Position numbers and translations under genes: made by a program. From Ilex aquifolium (taxonomy: Eukaryota; Streptophyta; Magnoliopsida; Aquifoliales; Aquifoliaceae): a DNA stretch of 64,000 nt. The stretch is from contig OX637393.1 in assembly GCA_951799425.1 (NCBI GenBank), positions 2,114,501-2,178,500 of the forward strand, given 5' to 3'. Shown one piece after another: positions 47,685-64,000 of this stretch; the first letter of the stretch is position 1, and every line of letters starts with the position of its first letter. A model generated the notes under the pieces. The model saw only the letters and a program-made list of their open reading frames with translations, was not told the origin of the DNA and ran no database searches.

Positions 47685-48961
47685 ATGTGATCTTAGTGCT
47701 TGTTGGTGAGGAGGGAAGACTAATATGTGAGTTCTATAGACTTCCGTGAACAATGTTTAATTTTCCTCCTTCATTTTTTTTCCTTAAACTGTCGTGGCCT
47801 TTTTCTGACATTGAATTCTTCTTAAGTCACAAATGGCAACACCGTGTTTGACTGTTGCTCTGATTTTCACAAGTAATACTTTTTTATAAGAGTCTTGAAA
47901 TATGTAAGAAGGTAACTGGGTCTTCTAAAATAAATGGTTAGTATATGTAGGCGATGGACCCATGTTTTATGCTTCTTGGATTAAACCAAAATAGTTAGGA
48001 ATTCAGACGAAAAAACTCACCTGACTTAGTCCAATCCAATCCAATCCTCTTTGACATGATTACCCGACCCTCTTCCTCTTCATCTTCCTTTGTTCTGGTG
48101 GTTTCACAACCCAAGCACTAACTCTAAACCCGATCACCACCTCCACAGAGTTACCCACAAAGAAGGATCGTAGTTAGTCCAGTAACAGGACCAATGCAGA
48201 TTAAGACTTAGATTTTCTGCCTTTCAATTTGAAAGATTCCCTCATAAGACAGACTATTCCAAGAATTTTTTTAAGGTACCATGTATAATGCAATAAAAAC
48301 AAGAAGGCTTCGTATTAGGCATAATGTTAAATCCAGTTGGTATATCATGGAGATAATGCAAACGACAATAGGGTCTGCTACAGATGCGCCACAAAGCATC
48401 AAATTCATCTACATAAAACATACCTGTGGTCTTTCAGGTTCTTCAGCTGAATTAGCAACTGCCACAAATCCAGCATAGGCAAAAAATATGACAGTTGCTC
48501 TGACTGTGGTGGTGGATGTAAGAAAGATAAAACCATTTGGGGGGCAAAAGGTAAGAAAACCGAAACATTATCTGAGTCAGGGTGGCGGAGTGGCGGAGCG
48601 GTGGTGGGCCGATTTTTACGGTTAGTGTTTGTGTAGTGCCACCAGAACAAAAAAGAAAGATGATGGGGAAGGAGAGAGAGATTGAAGTTAGTGGGTATTC
48701 GAGATTTTCCGTAGAATTTCTAGAAAAAATAAAATTTAAATTAAGCAAACAAGAGCATCTCCGATAGATGTCATTTTAAAATATTATAAATTTTATATAA
48801 AAAATAGTATATATTTTATTGAAACTAAAATTTTCATTAAACTTAACTAATATAAATTTAAACGACAATTAAAAATACAATGCTAAAGCATAAATTCTAA
48901 CCAAATTATATGTTTCTACATAAAATAAATTGTATTAAATACTTAACAATTTTATAAAATA
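47685..48961. other. Upstream region of copy F
   Basis: Positions 47685-47776 are of the copy A type. From about 47777 the sequence is of the copy D type (to 48950), so the two upstream modules were recombined. No gene is called; the frames at 48405-48767 are shifted relative to their D-side counterparts. Confidence 0.55.
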
Positions 48962-50168
48962 CTAGCAATTGTCCGTGCCTAAAGACACGACGTAACAAAC
49001 AAAAAATCGAAAGCAAATATATATACATTAAGAGACTGTATGCCATAAAAAATTAGCAATTAGAAAAACTAAGAAAAAATATTGATAAATATAATATGGA
49101 CCCATTATTTAAAAAAAAAAACTTGATAAAATACAAATCAAAACAATCTCAAACAATGTTCAATGATCGTATAATTATTAATTGATATCCAAATGGTAGT
49201 AAAGTCAAAAAACATTGTGGTATGAAAACAATCAAATAAATATGAGATAGAAAGCAAGGAAGGGGGATTAAGAGATGAATTGCAACAAAAAATATAATAA
49301 ACAACATCAACAAAACCTAAATCAATTAAAATTAAATTTTTAACACTCTATCGGGTTAAATTGCATTTTCTGTCCTCATAGTATGTTGATAGTTTAGAGA
49401 ATGCTCGTGTCTCTAAATATAATTTTTTTTTATATTCTTCCAAACAATTACGGCTAAATTCTCTCTAAAAATATGACCCTACAAAAATATGAAAATGTGC
49501 AAACCTTATCAAGTAAAGATGTTTTTCATATATCATACTTAAACATATCTGTGAGTTGCAGTAGAAATGTGTGCGTGTGGTGGTGGGGATGCGTTTGTTG
49601 GCTAGGGAGGTTTCGGTGGCAGTGGTGGGGACTGGGAGGAAAAGGGATGAAGGTGCTAGTTGGCTGCAGGTAAGAGTTTAACTTTGGATATATAGGGTGT
49701 TTGGTGGACTGTTATGAGTTTCGGTGGCAGAGGGGAGAGGGAAGGAAGAGGTAGCTACGGTAAGGGGAGACATACGTAGAGAGAGAGGGGGGAGGGATAC
49801 TCGGGTGTGGCTTCAAGATTGTCGATGGTTGATCATTGTCTTCGATGGTGCCTCCATAGTGTTTCTGTGAAGAGAGAGGGTTTCAGTGAGGAGAGAAAAA
49901 GAGAGAAGAGAAGGGGGCACCGGTGGCTACAGGGGCGGCTTAAGCCAATTTGTGGCCTAAAGTAGAAATATTAAATGGAGGCCTTCTTTATTTTTAGTAT
50001 TATTTTTTTAAAAAAAATTAATTTATTTTTAATTTTCTATGTGAGAGTGAGTCAAAAAAAGAATGTGTTAATATTGTCGAGAAAGAGATTTCAACTTTTG
50101 TTTTTATTTTTTATCACATAGAAGGAGAGAGAGTGTTTAATTTCTACTTTTGTTTTTTTTACTGGATG

Positions 50169-50199
<31 letters not shown>

Positions 50200-51017
50200 A
50201 GAGAGAGTAAATATGAGTTGACTTTTGAGTATTTTTTTTATTTTTTTAATCTCTAAGTTTTTAATGTTATGGATTGGATTATAGGCCCAAATTATTACAA
50301 TAAAAATTTTGATTGGATTTAATTTTTTGGAGCTTTATTGTAAGGCTTAAAATTTAATTGATTTAATTTTTTTTATGGGCCAGTGATGTACCTAAAATTA
50401 TGGGGCCTTCGAAAAATTTGGGGCCTAAAACCCATGCTTTTTTTTTTCCATACTGTTGGGCCGGGCCTAAGTGGCTATTTGTTGGGGGCAAAGATCGAGA
50501 GGAGGAACAAAGAGAGAAAGAGAGGGAGGCAGAGGAGAAAGGGGATATCAGAAATAATTGGGTGAAAATATCGAGATGGATGCAGATGATAAAGAAAAGC
50601 GGAGTAAATAATATAGTATCATCATTATATTGAACATTCTGAAGTTGTGATGTGAAAAAATGATTTCACTGATATGAAAATGATATTATTTAAAGCAGTA
50701 TGAGCGGGGGTCAAAATTTAAATATGAACCTTAATTTTAGATTTGGACATAATTTTAGATTTAGATGGCACTGGTTTTGGGCGAGATTGAGAAGCGAATT
50801 CAATGTAGGGGTGTCAATTTTGAAAACTAAAAATTTTGAGCAGCAAAAATATTTCAAAAGAGCTAATATGATACGTATGATCAAAATGATCTGAGACGTC
50901 AATAGCTTAAGACAGTTTAGGATAACGCCGTCCGTTGGATGATGACTTTTTTGATTACGAAACGATCTTGGCTGCTCTTTGTCTCCAAAATTCAAAATCA
51001 TTATATTTTATTATATA
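48962..51017 (-). mobile_element. Helitron H1
   Basis: Minus strand: 3' end has hairpin GTGTCTTTAGGCAC and CTAG (48962-48965), followed by T. 5' end is TATATAATAAAATATAATG-like, lacking the first TC. About 200 bp next to the 5' end match the same part of H2. The orthologous spacer upstream of copy D (about 39843) has no insertion. No helicase. Contains a (GA)n tract near 50170-50205. Confidence 0.7.
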
Positions 51018-53218
51018 CTAGTCATAACTCGTGCCTGAAGGCACTATAGAACAAAAAATTCGAGTCCTAAAAAATCGATATCATTATATTAAATAATAAT
51101 TTTTCTTTCCTTCATTTATTTGATTAAATCATTTAAAAATTATTTTTACCCATTATTTTCTTAAAGATATTGACAAAATTTTCTCAAAATATGTAATTCG
51201 ATATATTTTTTTAACAGATCTATACTATCGTGTATGGATAATATCTGAAATAAAAATTATGTTAAATTTTAAATTAATCAAATATTAAATGGTTGAGCAT
51301 GTGATATAAATAAGTGATGTGATGGTTTTGGGGGAGAAAAAATGTATAAGGTATAAAATTCAACTTGCTATGTGTTTTATTATATAGATTTGTATAGATA
51401 TAAGGGAAAATTTCATCCAGCTCCCCTATAGTTAGGTCTAAATTTAATGACACATCCTTCCGATTTTGAAATTTCACTGTCACTCCCTGTTAGTGATTGT
51501 CGAGTTACACCGTTAATGGCGATGATTGATTTATAGAAATATCCCCGAATATTTTATAGGGTAAATTTTATCCACACCCCTTATAAATAAACCTAACTTT
51601 AACAACACTATCTTTTGATTCTGAAATTTCAATGCACTCCATTTTAGTTCTATTATATTAGACTTTATTTTGATCAATTTAATATTCAATTTTATCAAAT
51701 TAATTTTCTTTATTTAATTTAAACTAAATTAACATTTCATTTCATCAAATAAATACAAAATTGATATTTAATTTTATTAAATTAGTATTTAGTTATATTA
51801 ATTTAATATTTAATTTCATCAAATTAATATTATTTCTTTAAATTAATATTAAGTTATTATTTATTTTTATCAAATCAACATTAAATTGACATTCAATTTT
51901 ATTAAATTAAACTATTTAATTTATTAAATATAATATTAAATTCATTTAATTTAAAATTTAACCTTATTAAATTAATGTCATTTCTTTAATTTAACACCAA
52001 ATGAACATTCAATTTTATTAAAACAACATTCAAATTTATTCAATTAACATTAAATTCAATCAAATTAATACTAAATTAATATTTAATTTTATCAAATTAA
52101 AACTAAATTAATATTTAAATTTATCAAAATTAAGATCAAATTTATTCAATTAATATTAAACTTTATCAAATAATTTTAAATTTTATATATGAAGTATGAT
52201 GTGTGAGGAGCGGTCGGGCGACGTTGTGGAGAACATATGATAGCATAGGAATTAAAAATGGATAAGATTTTGACATTGACTTTATCAATTGTAATTTTTA
52301 TTATAGAAAAATCATTTTTAACTACAAAAATTATTATGATAAAAAAATATAAAAACTTGATTATGTAACCAAATGAGTGATAATATGATGACTAATATTA
52401 TAACAAAATTATAATACAACGTTTTAAAATAAAAAATTCATTGGGATAATATAATGATTGAAATTACGTTTGTTGGCTGGCTAGCGCATATATAATGAGG
52501 AAAGAATTGATGACATTTTAGTCTATTTACATAATAAAAAGTAATTTTAGTATTTTCACAAAATATTTTGTTAAATCATTATTTTATCTACTGATAGAGA
52601 CAAAAGTTATTGTTATAGGGATTGTCATTGAATTTAGACTCAACTACATGATGTTTAGATGAAACTTTCTCTAGATATAACATGTAGATATAGTATGTAT
52701 TCGATCTTTGTACTATATATATGTACAGTAAAGATGTGTGTGTGATATGAACAGTAAAGATGGAGAACAGTTGTATTAGGATAAAATTTTGGGGAGACAT
52801 GTGTCTCAGTTTGAAAAGAGAATCATGAAAGATAAGAGTGTGAGAGACAGTTAATGTCTCAGTATAGAAAGTGATCCCTTAACATAAGAAATAAAATCAG
52901 GGAAATAATTATAAAAGTTGTAATCTATATTTTAGGGAGAAAAAGACAGAGTTGAGGAATGAGGGATCGCTTAATTGTCGGATTTGATTGAGTTGGGGAA
53001 TTAAATTTAGGGATGTTAGTTTTAGAAACTAAAAGTTTTGAGCGGCAAAAATTTTCAAGGGCTAATATGGTACGTCGAATCGAAACGATCTGAGACGTCA
53101 ATAGCTTGAGACAGTTTGAAATATCGTCGGCCGTTGAATGATGTTTTTTTTGATCTCGAAACGATCTGAGCCGCTCTTTGTCTCTTGAATTTAAAATCGT
53201 TCTACTTTATTATATAGA
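51018..53218 (-). mobile_element. Helitron H2
   Basis: Minus strand: 5' TCTATATAATAAAGTAGAAC at 53218; 3' hairpin GTGCCTTCAGGCAC and CTAG at 51018-51021, directly abutting H1. Interior is AT-rich with many ATTAAAT-type steps and no coding sequence. Confidence 0.78.
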
Positions 53219-54070
53219 TATTGCATTAAAAAGATTTGACATATCTATCGAGATATGTCAAATTTATTTTTACCCAATCAACAATTTACATACCAATTGG
53301 AAAAGTCTTACCTACCAAAAGAGTTAATGGAGCCTAGGCCTGTCAAAATCTAACATGACACGATTAACCGACACGATTAACCGCGGATTAAACGGATTTG
53401 GGTGAGATCTTAACGGGTTCGGGTGATAAACGGGTCAACCCGTTTAACACGTTTAATAAACGGGTCGTATTCGGGTGAGACATGCTAACCCGTTTACCCG
53501 TTTAAATAAAATTAATAAAATAATAATTTTTTAAAAATAAATAACCAATTTTTTTTTTTTTTTTAATAACAGCCACATTAACCCTAACCTAATTTTGCAG
53601 ATTCTTGAACAGTTGACCGGCTGACGCTTTGTTCAGCTGTTGCGCCTCCAATGGAGCCTCTACCTGGCATTTGGGCATACCAGTTGGAGATGATTGAGTC
53701 CCACTCAGATGCTCATTCATTCAATCTCAATTCTGTGAGCCAAGAATTTAATTGAGGTAACATACTTTAATAAGGACATATTCGATGAAAATTCAAACTC
53801 TTACTCAAATTTAAGTTAAAAAAAAATCAAAAGTTTAATTCGGTATAGACATCTCCAATAGAAAACTCAAATTTAAAGGAAGATAAATTCAAATTTTAAA
53901 AAAGATAAATATGATTATTATTTTTTTAAAGGATGATGAAATTTCACCATTAAAAATTTGGGTATAAATTTGAGTCTCCCTTTATTTGAGTAAAAAAAAC
54001 GTGTCTCCCTTAATTTGATATAGGCATAAGTCTAACATTGGAAAAAAAATTTAAGTGTTTTTTTTAGGGA
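53219..54070. other. Spacer between Helitrons H2 and H3
   Basis: Positions 53335-53540 contain AACCCGTTTA/AACGGGT-type repeats resembling the hAT-like element at 12086 but without clear ends. Positions 53770-53890 match 39850-39960 upstream of copy D, i.e. the original host DNA resuming after the insertions. Confidence 0.5.
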
Positions 54071-54567
54071 CTAGTCATTGCCCGTGCCTGAAGGCACTGC
54101 GTTACTTGTAAAAAATAAACAAAAAATTCTCCAAAGCAACAACACATATACAAATACATTAGGAAAAAAAATACTAATAGAACCAAATCAAATTTTACAA
54201 TCTTTAAGTAATAAATGATCTCAACAATATTTTTATTGTATTCGTCACCATTACTATAATCCAATTCAACAACAAAACATAATTATAAACTCAATCCACC
54301 AATTTAATAAATATCTCAAACAAAAAACTATCCACAAATGCAACCATCTACATAATAAAAATAAGTTCACAAATGCTGTCAAAAAAATAAGTTTTGACAT
54401 TTGAGATTCCACCAGCTTCCAAAAGAATGAATACGACCTGTATTCATAAAAAATATTATATTTAGATGTTTTTTCATTCACTAAAAACATACAAATATTT
54501 TTTTCAATTCATCAACATTCTAATAATAAAAAGATTGAGAAATCATATTTACCTGCAAAATATCGCT

Positions 54568-54762
54568 TCATAAGTTCTGATGTTCATTGTTCCTCTGTTG
54601 AGCTTTCCAGTCTTCTAATGCTCGTAAACAGATTAAGTCTTCTTCGATTTCTTCTAACAGATCCTCCAATTCTATCATATCTAGAAAGCCATTCTCGAAA
54701 CGCTCCCGACGTGCACGTTGTGCCATTTGACGTTTTGTTAAAACATTATCGTCGATTGCCAT
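54568..54762 (-). CDS. Small ORF inside H3, unknown
   Basis: 64 codons, charged: a KRQMAQRARRERFENG basic stretch followed by an acidic Glu/Asp-rich helix. It runs in the Helitron's own direction. It could be a remnant of a Helitron-encoded protein or of a captured gene. I do not recognise it with confidence, and its expression is unproven. Confidence 0.3.
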   Translation of the reverse strand: MAIDDNVLTKRQMAQRARRERFENGFLDMIELEDLLEEIEEDLICLRALEDWKAQQRNNEHQNL

Positions 54763-55004
54763 TGCGTTCGACTTTTTTTTTTCCCTCTATAATACAATAA
54801 ACATGAGATCATAAGAATTTCAATCTATATACATAGTTACAGCTTCATTCAAAAATATCACAAGGAAGTACAGTTTTCACTTTCTTTGGCACAAAAATAT
54901 GCAAGTTACCTTTTTTTTTTTTTTTGCTGCATTGTTTGGTTTTGAAATAGATACAACTCATTTGGTGTTTGTTATAGTTTTTGGTTTTAGTTTGGTTTAT
55001 TACA

Positions 55005-55845
55005 GAGATTTTGATTTAAATTATTGATAAACTAAATAATGTTTAAGATATTTATGAATTAAATATTTTTTAAATTATTTATGAACTAAATAAAGTTTAA
55101 ATTATTTATGAACTAAATAAAATTTAAATTATTTATGAACTAAATAAAGTTTAAATTATTTATGAACTATAAATAAATTTTAAATTATTTATGAACTAAA
55201 TAAATTTTAAATTATTTATGAACTAAATAATGTTTTAATTATTTATGAACTAAATATTTTTTAAATTATTTATGAACTAAATAAAGTTTAAATTATTTAT
55301 GAACTAAATAAAGTTTAAATTATTTATGAACTAAATAAATTTTAAATTAGTTATGAACTAAAAAATGTTTAAATTATTTATGAAATAAATAATGTTTTAA
55401 TTATTTATGAACTAAATAATGTTTAAATTATTTATGAACTAAATATTTTTTAAATTATATTATGAACTAAATAAAGTTTAAATTATTTTTGAACTAAATA
55501 AAGTTTAAATTATTTATGAACTAAATAAAGTTTAAATTATTTATGAACTAAATAATGTTTTAATTATTTATGAACTAAATAATGTTTTAAACTATAAATA
55601 TTTTTAAATATTTTTTAAATTATTTATGAAGTAAGTAAAGTTTAAATTATTTATGAACTAAATAAAGTTTAAATTATTTATGAACTAAATAAATTTTAAA
55701 TTATTTATGAACTAAATAATGTTTTAATTATTTATGAACTAAATAATGTTTTAAACTATAAATATTTTTAAATATTTTTTAAATTATTTATGAAGTAAGT
55801 AAAGTTTAAATTATTTATGAACTTAATAATTTTTAAATAACCAAT
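55005..55845. repeat. 27-bp AT-rich minisatellite, array 1
   Basis: About 30 units of the type AAATTATTTATGAACTAAAT plus AAAGTTT, with AAAG/ATTT/AATG variants. A longer block including AAACTATAAATATTTTTAAA recurs at about 55585 and 55750, so there is a higher-order repeat. Confidence 0.92.
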
Positions 55846-56465
55846 CCAATAACAACAAATTATTTAATTGTAGATCACAGATTCTCAAATAAAACATAAC
55901 ATGGATTAACAAACTAAAATACAATATAGACCAACTACCAATGTTGGTAACATTTCAACATTGATGCAAGATGAAATTTTCAGAGGAATAAATATGCAGA
56001 GCATTTTATTTCAATATAATATCCATTTCTAGTTGGAAATTAAAGGCTAGGAAAATTAAGCATGAGAACATTTACCTGGTTCACGGCGATTAGTGTGGAC
56101 AACTATAATAGAAGTGAAGTCCTTCTTCTTTGCATATTCCACAATCTGCAGAAGCAACAGGATAAAGGCCTGAGTTGCATATCTAATGTCTTATATATCG
56201 TTATATACTCTAAAAAAATATAAGATTCTATCCAAAGCAAAATCGAACACTAATCATGTAATTTATAGACATCGTGCAATGCAGAATCGAGCACTAATCA
56301 TGCAATTTATACAACACGAATACGATAAAAAATTAGAAGATTTGAGTTTTCTTTTAGTCACTCGTTTAGTAAACAGATAGACCGACACTACACAATAAGT
56401 AAACGAATTAAGTATGAATGAAGCGAATCAAAAAAAATATGACACAACTCATTTATATATCGGTT

Positions 56466-56705
56466 ATAAATAATGTTTTAATTATTTTTGAACTAAATAA
56501 TGTTTTAATTATTTATGTACTAAATATTTTTTAAATTATATTATGAACTAAATAAAGTTTAAATTATTTTTGAACTAAATAAAGTTTAAATTATTTATGA
56601 ACTAAATAATTTTTTAATTATTTATGAACTAAATAAAGTTTAAATTATTTATGAACTAAATAAAGTTTAAATTATTTATGAACTAAATAATGTTTTAAAC
56701 TATAA
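56466..56705. repeat. 27-bp AT-rich minisatellite, array 2
   Basis: About 9 units of the same repeat as array 1, about 620 bp away. It is bounded on both sides by the same ACACAACTCATTTATATATC sequence, suggesting the array was inserted into or duplicated with it. Confidence 0.88.
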
Positions 56706-56967
56706 ATATGACACAACTCATTTATATATCGGTTATACACAACACAAATTCGATATGACACTATTCGTTGGATATGAATTAATAAACAAATCGAATATGG
56801 AATATTTTTTGACACAAATTTATTAAAATTCGATATGAACCCGTTTCGACCGACACAATTGATAGTCCCAAACACACTCACACCATTGTTATTGAGGCGT
56901 GCAGCCACGCACTTGGATCTGGCACCAAGAAAATCACCAAGAAACAGTACACCAATAAAACGGGTTC

Positions 56968-57523
56968 ATGACCAAGATTTTTTTGGCAATGAACATGACC
57001 ATGCAACAGTACACCACCACTCTCTGGCACCAAGAAAATCATGGCATGGCCAACAATATCTATGGCAACTCCTATAGTTCCCCTACTTCATCAATGGGAG
57101 TCCACACATACATGGCTTCTCTCTCAGTGAAACCAAGTTATGGAGCTTCAAATGAGGTCCTTCAGTGTTATGAGAGGGCTGATGAGGGTACTGATGTGCA
57201 TTTTCCATTTGTAGAAAACTCTAGTAACAGTGGGGGATGTGATAATAATAATGGTAAGGGCTCTGATTATAGTGATGGTTTGGAAGAAAACAATGTTGTG
57301 GTGGAACAAAGCAATACCAACAACAATGACTTCATCAACTTAAATGAAGAGAACCCACATGAGAATTCACTGATTGGGAAGGAAATGGATGGTCATGGGC
57401 AGGCAAAGCTTTGTTCTAGAGGGCATTGGAGACCTGCAGAGGACTCTTAAGCTTAGGGAACTTGTTGCCCTTTATGGCCCTCCAAACTGGAACCTTATAG
57501 CAGAGAAATTGGAAGGAAGATCA
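56968..57523 (+). pseudogene. R2R3-MYB exon 1 fragment captured by Helitron H3
   Basis: An open frame from 56968 runs through a Ser/Asn-rich N-terminal region into CSRGHWRPAEDS. After a 1-nt insertion near 57445-57448 the other frame continues KLRELVALYGPPNWNLIAEK and EGRS. This is the first MYB repeat and start of the second in the subgroup that includes MYB52/54/105/117 of Arabidopsis. The match stops at AGATCA followed by GTGTGT (57524), where such genes have their first intron, so exon 1 plus some intron was captured. The second repeat and recognition helix are missing. It lies antisense to the Helitron. No function as a transcription factor is expected. Confidence 0.85.
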
Positions 57524-58864
57524 GTGTGTTCTCTTTCACTGTGTGCGTTCTTTGAGGAATTTGGTCGAACATTTTGAATGCAACAACAACAAACAAACAT
57601 TTTGGTTGCACTGCCAAGTCTGCTATCATCAAGAACATACTCAATTCCAAGAAACTATCCAAGCCATACAACAGGATTCGAAGTACAAAAAATGAAGGCA
57701 ATCGAAAAATCAAAGATTAGTCCAATACCGTTCTAACATAACATGGACCCAGAACCCCAACTTAATTTATTCTTACTCGAAATGCTTTCTATCTAAAATG
57801 ACTAATACAAATATCACGTTCTATAATTCTACTGGCTGAAGCGCTTATAACTAAGATATGCATCCGAAGAACAGATCGGCACATGTTTGAAAAAGTATAG
57901 CTAAATCTTTTAAACAATTAAATTCACCAAAACTATATTGCTAGTTTAAAGGAAAATAATCCCTCCACTTCAAGGAAATACACAGAAAATGGTTGCTATC
58001 AAATCAAAATATGCTATGCCATATCCAAAAATGCATTGAAAACAAAAATCCTTTTATATTGAAAATTTCACCAAAATACAAAGAACAAAACCCAAACATA
58101 TATGAGTGCACTATCATAAGATCCAATCCAACCAAATGAACAAAACCCAATCCAACCAAATGAACAACTAAACATAGGACCAAAACTGTCAATCCAACCA
58201 AATGAACACCGGCACACAGGCGCACACACAAAAAAAAAACGCCAGAACACACACTGACACAAAAAACCCAAACACATGCACAGTTACAGAGAGAGAGAGA
58301 GAGAAAGGGAGAGAAGGGAAGAAACCCAGAAACACACATGAACACACACAAAAAAAAAAAAAAAAACCAAAACACACAATGGCACACACATAATGCTAAC
58401 ATAAACACACACATGCAAAAAAAAAAAGAGATCCACAGGGAGATACCTGGATTCCTTGCTGGCGGTGTTGCTGGAAGGTTACAGTGCATGTGTTTTGCAA
58501 GCGCAAAGTCACAGTGGCTGGCTGGGTGTCGGGTGAGGTAGAAAGAGATAAGGGAGAGAGTGAGAGAGGCGTGATATAGAGACAGAGGCGTGAGACTGTG
58601 AGAGAGAGAGGCGTGATAGAGAGAAAGCGGCGTGAGACTATGAGAGAGAGGGAGAGGCAGAACTGAGAGGGAGAGACGTGATAGGGCTCAGCTGGGCGGG
58701 AAAATTTTTTTTAGTAATCATCGTAGATCGTTAGATCATAATTTTTGAGGTGATCTGAACCGTCTTTTATGTTGGGATTACGTTGTCCGTTAGATTTGTC
58801 GAAAAACGATCTGGACCTCTCTTTGTCTTTTGGATTCAAACTTCGCTCTACTTTATTATATAGA

Positions 58865-61746
58865 CTAGCTAATGCCCGTGCCTGAAGGCACTGTGTGACA
58901 CAACAAAATCACCTGAATAAAAAATTAAATCCACAAAAATTAGCAAATGGGAAAAAAATTTAGTAACCAAAAAAGAAATCATAGAACCCACAAATACTAA
59001 TTGAGCTGAACTTAAATAACCATAATTGACTATCACGTCAATATTTTCAACCCTATTAAATCTGCACATAATAACTCAATACTCACGATCATCACACATA
59101 CACATTTCATCTTATAATATTACATAGAGGAGAATTATTTATAGCAATGCAACATCATTTCCTCCATGTAACAACAAAAAATTCTAGGCTTGATTAAACA
59201 TCAATTCTTACTCTTAAATAACTATAAAACCCATTAAGCTTGATTTAAAGTAGTCATAGTGGCAACTAAGCAACCAAATAATAACCAAAAACTCCTTAAA
59301 GGCATTTCGCAATCTAAAAACCCATCATTTTAAAATAGTTTTTGTGTCATTTGCTTTAATTAAAGAAATTGAAATCAATCAAGTCCCGCCATTTTTTCAA
59401 TAAATTTCGTCAAACTTTCCGATAAAAATAAAAACTCAAAAAAATCACAACCTGTCTACACAACTTATATATCTCATTGTATGTATCATTATCCAACACA
59501 GACCATTCCATAACCAATATTAAGAAAAAAATACTCAACCAAACTCAACGACAACACCAATTACTAAAGAACCAAAATGTAGAATTCCCCAAAATAGGTA
59601 GGCAAACAACCAAATCCCCAAAATAGGCAACCTTTTATCCAACTAATGTAGAAAACTAATTTTTTATAAACGCAAAATGTCAAGCAATTCCCAAAGAAAA
59701 CTACATATTTGACAAATATCATAACCAAAAATAATAATAAAATGAAACAATGCACAAAATTAACCCAAACATAACAATAGAGATATCAATGCATCCAAAC
59801 TTGAAGCTTAAACCCAAAGCATATTTTTCAACTCGAATGTGTCTTCCTCCAAGATTGTAATTTCATCATGGTTTTGGGGGTTAATGAGTAAAATTCCATG
59901 TATGGACAGTGAAGAATAAACAAACATAACCATAGAGATGATTAATGAGTAAAATCCGGTGATGGAAATGAATAATCAGAAAACGACATACATGCAGACA
60001 ATGAAACAACGATTAAATAAAAATTGAATAACATCCAAACAGCTAATTAGGCTAAGTAAGAGCATACAGATGTGTATGAGTGTAATCAATTAAGCACAAC
60101 CAGACAAAAAAATTAGAGTTAACAGACAGGCAAATCTGAATTTGGTGTTAACCAAAGAAATCAGGAATACCCAGATGATTTTTTTTTTTGATTAAAAATC
60201 AAAATCTCAGATGGATTGGAACATGAAAAAAATGGTTGAAGTTCAGAACCTCATGTAAAGTCTGCAAAGATGTACAAATTGGAAATGCATAGACAGCAAA
60301 CCTGAATATGATGTTTGATGATATTGAAACCCAAAAGCTCGGACCTGCAAACAAAAATTACAAACTAAACACTAAATAAACATCAAACTAACAATTCAAT
60401 CAGCAATCATTTGTTATGCACGGTTATCACAAAAATAATAAGAATAATAAGCATTGGGTTTAATGTACAAACATAGGAGCAAAAAAAAATCATAACTCAT
60501 AAGTAGCAGGAGATATTTGTTCGCTGAACATACACCAACGTACCAAACTATGGACAGTTATGAGAACTAAACAAATAGGAAAAAATAAGAGTACCCTGTG
60601 GATCTTCATCTTCATATAAGCACGAAATTAAATGTCCATAGTAGTACACACACACATAGACAGAGAACCCCTTTCTTAGTTTAAGGCAACACCAAATCAC
60701 ATATGTATGCTGAAATCTAAGACAACACAAAAATATAATTCATCAAACTCCCATTCCAAAATCACACAATCGTTATGAAAACCAAACCCTAATTAAGCAC
60801 TTGTAGATTTACGCGTATAGAAGAGAGGGGGCTAAGTCAAGGTCCTTTGGGACATTTTGTCGAACAGCTTATAGGCCGTAGTTGATAATGCCATTTTGAG
60901 AGAGAGAGAGATGATTGGGTTTGGGTGTGGGTGTGGGTGTGAGAAGAGAGAGGGGGAGAGAGAGATACCTGGAGAGCCTAGGAAGAAAGGCCTCGCTGAT
61001 GGCGTCTTCACTGGCTGACGTCGGTGTCGCTGGGAGTATGAAATGGGGGGGGGGGGGTGTTTGTGTGCTGTGTGTGTGTGTCTATTTGTGTGTGGCGACG
61101 TGTGTGATATGTGTGTGCGTGTGTTATATGTGGGATGTGATATCTGTGTGCTGGTGCGTGCGTTTGTGTTCTGGTGTGTGTGTGTGTGTGTGAGTCGTGA
61201 GACAGGGAGGGTGATGTGTGTGTCGTGAGAGAGAGTGGGGGGATACCTGGGTGACGACAGAGAAGCCATGGCAGAGCGAGCGGAGAGAGAGAGAAGGAGA
61301 AACGATGCCTGGTCTGGGAAGAAGGTCGCATGCCTGTGTGTTAGACAGAATGGGTGGCGTGTGGGTGTAGTTAAATTGGGCGGGATTTTATTTTTGTGTG
61401 GGATGTCTCGTGAGCCGTTGGATTAAGTTTGATGAATTTAGATGAAATCTAAACCATTTAATTTAAAATGAATTCAATCTAAGTTGTTATTGTGCTTTTT
61501 CAATTTTAAGATAGAGACGTATGAGAGATAGGAGTGTAGAGTCTTACAATGAGAGGCTTCTTTATGGGCAGGAAAAGAAATTCAGGATTAACTGTAGACC
61601 GTTAGATCAAAATTTTTGAGATAATCTGAACCGTTTTTTATATTGGGATTACGTTGTTCATTAGATGTATTTATGTTATGTTTCAAAACGATCTGGACTA
61701 CTCTTTGTCTTTTGGATTCAAACTTCGCTCTACTTTATTATATAGA
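58865..61746 (-). mobile_element. Helitron H4
   Basis: Minus strand: 5' TCTATATAATAAAGTAGAGC at 61746, preceded by A; 3' hairpin GTGCCTTCAGGCAC, CTAG at 58865-58868, followed immediately by the TC start of H3. About 140 bp inside its 5' end match H3 closely. Interior has GT- and GA-rich microsatellites (60900-61230) but no supported coding sequence. Confidence 0.8.
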
Positions 61747-62035
61747 TATTTGGAGGCCGGTCCCCCTATATGGACTTGTTTGGATTTAAGTCCGTCAATG
61801 AAACTTATTTGTTATGAAGTCCGTTTTTTGTCAATTTTACCATACTATCCCTTTCCTTTAAAAGTGAAATAAAACTAAAAATTAAAAACTCCTAAATCTT
61901 AGGAGTTTGACTAACATTAAAATTTTCTCTCTCTCATATATCTATATCCATATATTGGTTAAGAGTTTGACTAACATTAAAATTTTGCCTCTCTCTTATC
62001 TATCTATATCCATATATAGGTTAGATATATATATA
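61747..62035. repeat. Spacer with a 59-bp direct duplication
   Basis: A unit starting GAGTTTGACTAACATTAAAA occurs at 61904-61962 and again at 61963-62024. Otherwise nothing is seen. Confidence 0.75.
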
Positions 62036-64000
62036 CTAGTCATTACCCGTGCCTGAAGGCACTATATAACAAACAAAAAACTCTTACACAATTGTCCAAA
62101 TTCAAAAAGAATGGGCCAAAAATATTCATACCAATTCTTCTTTTAAAATGACTCAAAATATATCGCCGATCATATCCTCCATATTAATAGAACTGTCGTA
62201 AAAATATATACAACTCTTCAAAACAACACCATATATACAAATGCCTCCGAAAAAAAAACAAATATTAACATAATCCATTGAAATTTACAATCTTTAAGTA
62301 ATAAATAAAATTTTTCTCATTTATAAGACTCAATAATTTATCACATTTACCACCACTCAATCCAATAATAGAATATAATTATAAACTTAATCACCATATT
62401 TTCAATCCACCATATCTCCATTTAATATATATCTCAAGCAAAAAAAAAAAAATTTACTAACATAACACAATTAAATTCACAATCGTTAAGCGATAAATAA
62501 AATCAACCAAATCTTACTCATTTATAAAACTCATGAATTTATCACCACTATCACCATTCAACCCCAAATGGCACAACAAAATTATAAATTTAATTACCAA
62601 ATTTTCAATCCTTCACATATAAATATACACAGAAACATACTCTCACACATTTTTTTTTGACTACCAACAAACCTTCCTAATTAATAACTGATTTTATTAA
62701 AAATATAATAATTCAAGTTTTTATGATAAAATAATAATAAATTAATATCTAATTAAAAAATAAGGAAAAAAATACGGACTTCCTCTGAGTTTTGACAATA
62801 TTATGAAGACACCCCCTGATATTTTATAAATAACACAGAAATCCCCAAAATTTAAAATTTATTACACAGAGACCCCTTTGTCTCCCTTCCTTCAATATTG
62901 CTAACGTAAAGTGATGATTTTATCCCAAAAAAATTATTATTTTTATAATTGCCTTTCTCCAACTTGAGTACCCAAAAAAATTAAAAATTTAATAAAATAA
63001 AATAAGATTTGATTTAGTACCCAAAAAATTGATATAATTTAGTACCCCCAAAAAATTGATTGAATGAATTTTAATATTAATTTGATAACAATAAAAATTA
63101 ATTTGATATTAATTTGACAAAGTTGAATATAAATTGAACAAAATTAAATGTCAATTTCTGATAAAAATATATATTAATTTACAATTTAAGGTTCATTTCG
63201 TGTTTAATATTATTTGTTGTTGATTAAACCAACATGAAATTGACCTTAAATTCTAAATTTTTTTGTTGTATATAAACTTAAAAATTTGTATTTTAACCCA
63301 TATAATTTAAATACAGATTTTTTCATAGCATAGCGTATTCTCACTTACTATATAATTTAATTATTCTTTATTATTTTTACAATCAATTTCAATTTTGACT
63401 TCAACTTTGAATATTCGTAAAATTCAAGCAAAGTTAAGTTTAAACAAAAATATATACTTTATACTTGACAATCAAATTCAGCTAAATTCGAATTCTAATC
63501 ATAATCACGTCAAACCGATAATTGAGTAAATCGGTAAAAAATTTTAACACGAACACGAACCATTTAATAAATAGGTAATACGACACGACTCGTTTAACCC
63601 ATTTACAAAAAAATAAAAAAAAATATTATTTTAATAAATTTTTACACTCCATTTATTTGCTTTCAACTGTACTTTCCTCAATTGAAAGAATTACAGCCAA
63701 CAGCTCACGTGAAAATCACACCACAAAGGTTGGTTAAAATGAGAAGTTCACTACCCTTTTTATAGGCAAATGAAGTCTCCCCTCTCCACTCTTTGTCGAT
63801 GTGGGATTCAAAGAAAAGGGCCAAAAGGCAATTCAATGTCTCAAGGCTCAAAACTTCACTTTCTTACTATTGATATGCTTTTTTTTTTTTAAATGTTTTT
63901 TTTTTTTTTTTTTTTTTACTCATTCATTATTTTATATATATATAATTTATTATTATATTAAATTTATTTAAACGGGTTGACAGATCTCACCCGAATATGA
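62036..64000 (-). mobile_element. Helitron H5, 3' part (5' end not in window)
   Basis: CTAG at 62036-62039 (minus strand end, followed by T) with hairpin GTGCCTTCAGGCAC as in H2-H4. No TCTATATAATAAAG 5' end occurs before the window ends, so only the 3' end is certain. Positions 63540-64000 contain CGACACGACTCG and AACGGGTT motifs like the hAT-like MITE, probably another insertion running out of the window. Confidence 0.55.

What the first reader, a model, noticed from the sequence alone, without database searches (positions are those of the whole stretch)
48962..64000. Head-to-tail chain of at least five same-family Helitrons, with directly abutting ends
Seen: five copies of the 3' terminus (hairpin of the GTGCCTTCAGGCAC type plus CTAG) and four matching 5' ends, all minus strand. 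H2 abuts H1 at 51017/51018 and H4 abuts H3 at 58864/58865, with CTAG running straight into the next 5' end. Known: Helitrons insert between A and T and leave no target duplication. Inference: either repeated targeting of the AT dinucleotide that lies at a Helitron 5' end, or rolling-circle products made as tandem arrays. Members differ greatly in length and cargo, so they are separate insertions rather than one recent amplification.
Basis: partly seen in the sequence, partly recalled or inferred. Interest (0 to 1): 0.8.

Follow-up and report, generated by a model that had tools for sequence, protein, structure and literature searches.

The report
Helitrons stacked end to end
In this plant-like genome, rolling-circle jumping genes (Helitrons) seem to land again and again exactly at the front end of another Helitron, in the same direction, which points to recognition of that end rather than chance or tandem copying.

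Summary
The ends are real. Window 48962-64000 holds five minus-strand Helitron 3' ends and four 5' ends. Only two pairs abut: H4|H3 exactly (58865/58864), and H2|H1 (51018/51017) with H1's "TC" missing. Gaps of 852 and 289 bp break the chain.

The exact joint CTAG|TCTATATAATAAAG occurs 527 times in 800 Mb, reversed control 0, against 5922 exact 5' ends: 8.9%.

Rolling-circle dimers are not supported: 23 same-subfamily neighbour pairs are no more alike than random members. Plain AT targeting is not enough: 0.06-0.3 abutments expected for 1780 insertions of one type, 9 seen in the 100 listed. The exact head-to-head joint is absent. Ordinary targets carry a longer motif, A|T-N6-ATA, which the abutted end matches poorly.

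The older subfamily was not seen upstream of the younger (0 of 36; reverse 13 of 32), so the upstream copy is probably the later one.

Best reading: later copies insert at a resident's 5' terminus because the transposase recognises it. Single pairs are published (maize, bat); the frequency, orientation, motif and order evidence seems new within my searches. A TC-less class (237) is unexplained.

The parts
48962..51017 (-). H1, 2056 bp. 3' end CTAG with degenerate hairpin at 48962; 5' end lacks TC (TATATAATAAAA)
51018..53218 (-). H2, 2201 bp. Its 3' CTAG is joined directly to H1 (TC-less joint); 5' flank ...GCAATA|TC
51014..51021 (-). Joint H2|H1, CTAG|TATA(TAATAAAA): TC-less class; CTAGTATATAATAAAG occurs 237 times genome-wide, control 0
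53219..54070 (.). 852 bp not assigned to these Helitrons: break in the chain
   Evidence: coordinates
54071..58864 (-). H3, 4794 bp; holds a MYB-gene fragment and a 27-bp tandem repeat array
58865..61746 (-). H4, 2882 bp, joined exactly to the 5' end of H3; 5' flank ...CAAATA|TC
58861..58868 (-). Joint H4|H3, CTAG|TCTA(TATAATAAAG): exact class, 527 genome-wide, control 0
61747..62035 (.). 289 bp between H5 and H4; the 3' flank of H5 (TATATATATATC) fits the target motif T-N6-ATA
62036..64000 (-). H5, 3' end at 62036; 5' end not located within the window

Best explanation
These are canonical Helitrons (TC...hairpin...CTAG, host A|T) of several families that share the 14-base 5' terminus TCTATATAATAAAG. 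A later copy inserts exactly at the 5' terminus of a resident element, in the same orientation, so the new CTAG runs straight into the resident's TC. Shown: the joints, their excess, the single orientation, the independence of the two partners, and the poor match of the abutted 5' end to the ordinary target motif. Supported but not proven: the upstream partner is the later arrival. Inferred: the transposase treats the resident's 5' terminus (normally cleaved as a donor end, A|TC) as the acceptor and joins the incoming strand there, instead of at a free A|T-N6-ATA target.
For: Frequency: 527 exact joints, control 0, against 5922 exact 5' ends, control 80. Of the 100 listed GCAATAACTAGT 3' ends (1780 in all, control 51), 9 coincide with exact joints. 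A random-AT model predicts 0.064 for all 1780, and 0.27 when weighted by the target motif (AT density scaled from the window). Orientation: the head-to-head 24-mer gives 0. A 14-mer gives 21 places, control 3; in the 14 stretches fetched I saw no clear Helitron-Helitron joint. Target motif: 51 flanks have T at +1 in 51 and A, T, A at +8, +9, +10 in 46, 45, 48; A at -1 in 20 of 20 5' ends chosen outside the exact joints. The exact-abutment site scores 2.1 bits (7.2% of window AT sites score as high) against a median of 7.9 for the flanks the motif was built from. Insertion 4 bp upstream of a 5' end fits the motif (12.2 bits) and is seen: 60 of the 100 listed of 287. Independence: mean rank 0.56 in 23 pairs. 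Order: younger upstream of older 13 of 32, older upstream of younger 0 of 36, probability about 0.004 under symmetry; age order; upstream less diverged in 20 of 29 pairs, p 0.004.
Against: No empty site was seen, so order rests on subfamily ages. In same-subfamily pairs the divergence difference is weak (14 of 23, p 0.07), and transversions alone show none. The share of 5' ends occupied hardly differs between the older (78 of 604) and younger (196 of 1819) subfamily, p 0.16. About a tenth of the real target flanks score as low as the abutted end (10th percentile 2.5 bits, minimum -4.3), so the mismatch is of degree. Of the three isolated 3' ends in the window only H5's flank fits the motif at +8 to +10. 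Of the first 30 joints, 4 lack a recognised hairpin upstream. Maize presence/absence data (PMC2267711, passages) left the order open and can be read the opposite way. Head-to-head products would be palindromes, which may be lost or misassembled. No transposase was identified or tested.
Confidence: 0.62

Rival explanations
1. The downstream element is the later one: it inserts at the CTAG|T of a resident's 3' end, re-using the T-N6-ATA half of the original target, which stays just beyond the resident. This also gives exact abutment in one orientation.
For: Explains orientation and exactness without 5'-end recognition. Outer 3' flanks of several listed pairs keep the motif (e.g. L032, L034, L035, L037, L047, by eye). 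Maize lines with one element of a pair alone allow it (PMC2267711, passages).
Against: Would predict older-upstream/younger-downstream pairs: 0 of 36, against 13 of 32 the other way. Upstream elements are on average less diverged (20 of 29), weakly so within subfamilies (14 of 23). 20 of 20 sampled isolated 5' ends follow an A, not a G.
Confidence: 0.2
2. Rolling-circle tandem products: one element copied through its own terminator, or a multimeric circle, integrated once.
For: Circles with precise CTAG|TC joints exist for Helraiser (PMC4778049, PMC5876387; passages). Tandem arrays in bats and plants are cited in PMC5876387 and PMC5148889 (passages).
Against: Neighbours are no more alike than random family members (mean rank 0.56, 23 pairs). 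Many joints link different families or lengths. In the window H3 and H4 differ in length (4794 and 2882 bp), and H1 and H2 reach 82% ungapped identity over a 160-bp stretch at their 5' ends.
Confidence: 0.06
3. Ordinary AT-dinucleotide insertion that by chance hits the AT created at a Helitron 5' end, in an AT-rich neighbourhood where Helitrons cluster.
For: The site is formally A|T. Helitrons are reported to insert near other Helitrons (PMC12477314, passage citing Yang and Bennetzen 2009).
Against: Expected 0.06-0.3 for 1780 insertions. Among offsets 2-31 upstream, none but -4 exceeds 7 of 100 listed. The exact opposite orientation is absent.
Confidence: 0.05
4. A few ancestral joints were copied as composite units that start at the upstream 5' end and skip the first terminator.
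For: Composite Helitrons with several ends are described (PMC5148889, PMC3288121; passages).
Against: For the upstream members of the 23 same-subfamily pairs, the closest copy at another locus is 0.059-0.196 away, so none of these is a recent copy of another. Partner families differ between loci.
Confidence: 0.05

Closest known systems
Adjacent head-to-tail Helitrons No.1/No.2 in the maize r1 region (Du et al. 2008, PMC2267711; abstract, outline and passages seen)
   Same: CTAG of one joined directly to TC of the next; dissimilar contents; read by the authors as consecutive insertions, with order undecided between the 5' AT and the 3' GT.
   Different: One pair. No genome-wide count, orientation control, target-motif comparison or order test in the passages I read.
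Tandem Helitrons of Myotis (Pritham and Feschotte 2007, as described in PMC2267711; not read directly)
   Same: Perfect head-to-tail CTAG|TC joints.
   Different: Interpreted there as tandem repeats. Here the sampled partners are independent copies.
Helraiser circles and target preference (PMC4778049, PMC5876387; passages seen)
   Same: Precise RTS-LTS (CTAG|TC) joints; AT target; AT-rich preference strongest in the 3' flank.
   Different: There the joint belongs to one element's circle. The A|T-N6-ATA spacing and insertion at resident 5' ends are not in the passages seen.
Fusarium/Metarhizium Helitrons (PMC5148889; passages seen)
   Same: Three copies in tandem; [quoted passage not shown]
   Different: Non-canonical ends, single case, undecided.

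Membership tests
Canonical Helitron (Helitron1) | 5' terminus TC | tested here: met
   Met by 3 of 4 window 5' ends; H1 (51017) lacks TC.
Canonical Helitron (Helitron1) | 3' terminus CTRR preceded by a short hairpin | tested here: met
   CTAG plus hairpin at the five window 3' ends, degenerate at 48962; 26 of the first 30 genome joints match the hairpin pattern.
Canonical Helitron (Helitron1) | Insertion between host A and T without target-site duplication | tested here: met
   A at -1 in 20 of 20 5' ends (chosen outside exact joints). T at +1 in 51 of 51 3' flanks, but there the search pattern itself ends in T, where it did not, T follows 97 of 97 3' ends. No empty sites compared.
Canonical Helitron (Helitron1) | RepHel transposase in the autonomous partner | not tested
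   The longest stop-to-stop ORF in 48900-64000 is 227 aa.
Rolling-circle tandem array (bat/centromeric type) | Adjacent units are near-identical copies | tested here: not met
   Neighbour distance ranks average 0.56 in 23 same-subfamily pairs.
Consecutive-insertion Helitron pair (Du et al. type) | Dissimilar elements with CTAG joined to TC | tested here: met
   H4|H3 and 527 genome joints, of which 50 loci were read around. Not met at H2|H1, which lacks TC.

The most novel reading that the evidence does not exclude
Helitron circles carry a joined CTAG|TC end. The transposase may exchange this joint with the A|TC of any resident sharing the 14-base 5' terminus, so integration becomes site-specific recombination between two 5' ends (LTS x LTS). 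This would build oriented chains with the newest copy at the upstream end, separate from the A|T-N6-ATA target pathway. A cut two bases further in, in both partners, could give the TC-less class.
Probability: 0.3. Interest if true: 0.72.

Novelty: new variant of a known kind. Interest (0 to 1): 0.52.

Why it matters
Whether head-to-tail Helitrons come from rolling-circle multimers, insertion at the 5' AT or insertion at the 3' GT was left open in the maize and fungal work whose passages I read. This genome supplies hundreds of joints. Those sampled argue against dimers and chance and favour a mode of insertion aimed at the resident's own 5' terminus. The longer target motif (A|T-N6-ATA) lets the two modes be told apart by sequence. 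If right, it makes a direct biochemical test possible (is a resident 5' end an acceptor?) and explains how Helitrons build directional chains and composite elements.

Tried and rejected
Rolling-circle dimers: disfavoured by neighbour similarity. Random AT targeting: rejected by count and orientation. Target-motif insertion at the exact 5' end: disfavoured by the motif score; the motif fits the offset -4 class. The motif scores were not cross-validated, and 8 Helitron-like flanks of 60 were set aside before it was built: L068 (exact joint but for base 14), L071 and L079 (TA for TC), L084 and L099 (shortened ends), L119 and L121 (offset 4) and L120. The 60 were taken outside loci already fetched, so they under-represent joints. 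Order from simple divergence: all 29 pairs favour a younger upstream element (20 of 29, p 0.004), but part comes from mixed subfamilies and from one spurious 4.8-kb downstream unit (L038). Same-subfamily pairs give 14 of 23, p 0.07 (L038 included), and transversions alone show nothing. Order from occupancy of old and young 5' ends: no difference (78/604 against 196/1819, p 0.16). Subfamily typing uses short 5' and 3' signatures; of 64 complete elements, 3 pair a younger-type 5' end with an older-type 3' end and 7 more have a 3' end the rule could not type. In the order test 3 of 36 and 3 of 32 upstream partners were untyped; 19 of the 55 joints in L001-L050 plus window, whose downstream partner belonged to other families, were left out. 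One search printed 0.003 from earlier hand tallies; one search gives about 0.004 from the automatic ones. TC-less class (237): a TC-less end behind host AA occurs 12 times in the younger subfamily, so the loss seems to go with joints, but I found no firm cause. Literature searches without new leads.

Full report
OBSERVATION. The window lies at contig C3:2114501-2178500 of an 800-Mb, 103-contig genome; it looks like a plant's, and the species was not identified. On the minus strand, 3' ends (hairpin, then CTAG) end at 62036, 58865, 54071, 51018 and 48962, and 5' ends begin at 61746, 58864, 53218 and 51017. H4|H3 is an exact CTAG|TCTATATAATAAAG joint. H2|H1 is CTAG|TATATAATAAAA: H1's TC is missing. 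The two abutting pairs are separated by 852 bp, and H5 lies 289 bp from H4. The finding is right about the ends, the strand and one exact joint, and overstates the chain and the second joint.

GENOME-WIDE. The exact joint CTAGTCTATATAATAAAG occurs 265 + 262 = 527 times, reversed control 0. The 14-base 5' end occurs 5922 times, control 80, so 8.9% of exact 5' ends directly follow CTAG. Of the first 30 joints, 26 carry a hairpin matching the pattern just upstream; by eye two more (L001, L002) are family 3' ends with a deletion, and L004 and L025 are not recognised. Longer chains exist: L043 has five abutting joints found by script plus a degenerate one, about seven elements of roughly 590-870 bp; two of the joints have altered 5' ends.

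INDEPENDENCE. For 23 abutting pairs of the same subfamily I ranked the upstream-downstream distance among the upstream copy's distances to same-subfamily members at other loci. The mean rank is 0.56, or 0.54 without the spurious L038 unit; mean distance 0.172 against 0.158 expected, p 0.26. Neighbours are as unlike as random members. Other joints link different families. These are separate insertions, not rolling-circle dimers.

TARGET MOTIF. I read 60 flanks of GCAATAACTAGT 3' ends lying outside loci already held. Eight were Helitron-like and set aside; 52 remained, 51 after removing a duplicate. A, T, A at +8, +9, +10 occur in 46, 45 and 48 of 51. All 20 sampled 5' ends, chosen outside the exact joints, follow an A (one of them, L144, follows a Helitron end that lacks its final G). 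The family's ordinary target is therefore A|T-N6-ATA, longer than the AT dinucleotide usually quoted. AT-rich 3' flanks are described for Helraiser (PMC4778049, passages); this spacing is not in the passages I saw. The exact-abutment site scores 2.1 bits, reached by 7.2% of window AT sites, against a median of 7.9 and a 10th percentile of 2.5 for the flanks used to build the motif. A site four bases upstream of a 5' end (A|TATA-TCTATA...) scores 12.2. Such offset -4 joints are common: the gapped search gives 287, and 60 of the 100 listed have offset 4, with no other offset above 7. Ordinary targeting near a 5' end thus looks different from the exact class. In the window, the flank of H5 fits the motif, that of H1 has ATA one base early, and that of H3 does not fit.

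EXPECTATION. With about 164 million AT strand-sites (scaled from the window), 1780 insertions of one 3'-end type would hit one of the 5922 5' ends 0.064 times, or 0.27 times if weighted by the motif score. Among the 100 listed of these 1780 ends, 9 are exact joints.

ORIENTATION. AT is symmetric, so random targeting should give as many head-to-head joints. The 24-base head-to-head palindrome is absent. A 14-base version occurs at 21 places (control 3), 11 of them on C7. In the 14 stretches I fetched none reads by eye as a clear Helitron-Helitron joint; L054 is the nearest. Palindromes can be lost, so this is strong but not absolute.

ORDER. Insertion at the resident's 5' end and insertion at its 3' end give the same final structure; only order separates them. 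Two subfamilies differ in age: C (5' ...TACAATAC) has median pairwise divergence 0.249 and G (...TAGCTTAC) 0.150. Mean nearest-neighbour distance is 0.164 for C against 0.087-0.160 for G over 300 equal-size subsamples. In 87 joints examined (55 from L001-L050 and the window, 32 added and chosen by downstream type), 68 have a downstream partner of type G or C. G upstream of C is seen 13 times among 32 with C downstream, and C upstream of G 0 times among 36 with G downstream. Scaled for the unequal sampling, the probability under symmetry is about 0.004. Consensus divergence agrees in direction: upstream lower in 20 of 29, p 0.004; but same-subfamily pairs are only suggestive (14 of 23, p 0.07), transversions show no difference, and 5'-end occupancy is similar for C (78 of 604) and G (196 of 1819), p 0.16.

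MECHANISM. Shown: frequent, exact, single-orientation joints between independent copies at a site the ordinary target motif does not favour. Supported: the upstream copy is younger. Inferred: the transposase recognises the resident's 5' terminus as it would a donor end, cuts A|TC, and joins the incoming copy there. The most novel version is exchange between a circle's CTAG|TC joint and the resident's A|TC. Helraiser circles with such joints, and cleavage precisely at the joint in vitro, are published (PMC5876387, passages); use of a resident end as acceptor was not tested here nor in the passages I saw.

LITERATURE. Du et al. 2008 (PMC2267711; abstract, outline and passages) describe one dissimilar head-to-tail pair in maize and leave the order open. 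Tandem Helitrons in bats are cited there. The Fusarium paper (PMC5148889, passages) names 5'-end insertion as one of two options. Helitrons are said to insert near other Helitrons (PMC12477314, PMC3288121; passages). The passages shown of the wheat (PMC13286980), rice Mothra (PMC4683698) and maize transgene (PMC10095026) papers do not treat the question. Searches touching it listed no genome-wide orientation, motif or order test that I recognised from titles and abstract starts. The library holds open-licence papers only.

OPEN. The TC-less joint (as at 51018/51017; there followed by AAAA rather than AAAG) occurs 237 times, control 0; the four instances in held loci lie before at least two families. 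A TC-less 5' end behind host AA occurs 12 times for the G subfamily. It looks tied to joint formation, and I have no firm mechanism.

Noticed in passing
window 51018/51017; genome-wide: TC-less joint CTAG|TATATAATAAAG, 237 copies with control 0, before at least two families but rare behind host AA (12). Cause unknown.
   Followed up: partly
Flanks L065-L124: Longer target motif A|T-N6-ATA for the Helitron family, ATA positions +8 to +10 each matched in 45-48 of 51 flanks.
   Followed up: yes
Genome-wide: A second class of near-joints, CTAG|TATA|TCTATATAATAAAG, insertion four bases upstream of a resident 5' end; it fits the target motif.
   Followed up: yes
L043 936-5611 (minus-strand coordinates): About seven unlike Helitrons of roughly 590-870 bp abutting head to tail.
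   Followed up: partly
window 57398-57574 (+), inside H3: Captured MYB DNA-binding gene fragment (Pfam PF00249, E 3.9e-06).
   Followed up: no
window about 54942-56838, inside H3: 27-bp AT-rich tandem repeat array, split by other sequence.
   Followed up: no
window 51388 (minus), inside H2; L010, L011, L044: A second, internal 5'-end-like sequence with the same upstream bases (TATACAAA) in four loci: probably a fixed composite element.
   Followed up: no
L144: A 5' end preceded by a Helitron 3' end that lacks its last G (CTA|TC).
   Followed up: no
L034 5004-5739, L008 1504-2332: Elements with a younger-type 5' end and an older-type 3' end: likely chimeras.
   Followed up: no
G000 C7:7.06-7.86 Mb: Ten hits of ATATAGATCTATAT, four of them spaced at about 86-87 kb: possible segmental tandem duplication.
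   Followed up: no
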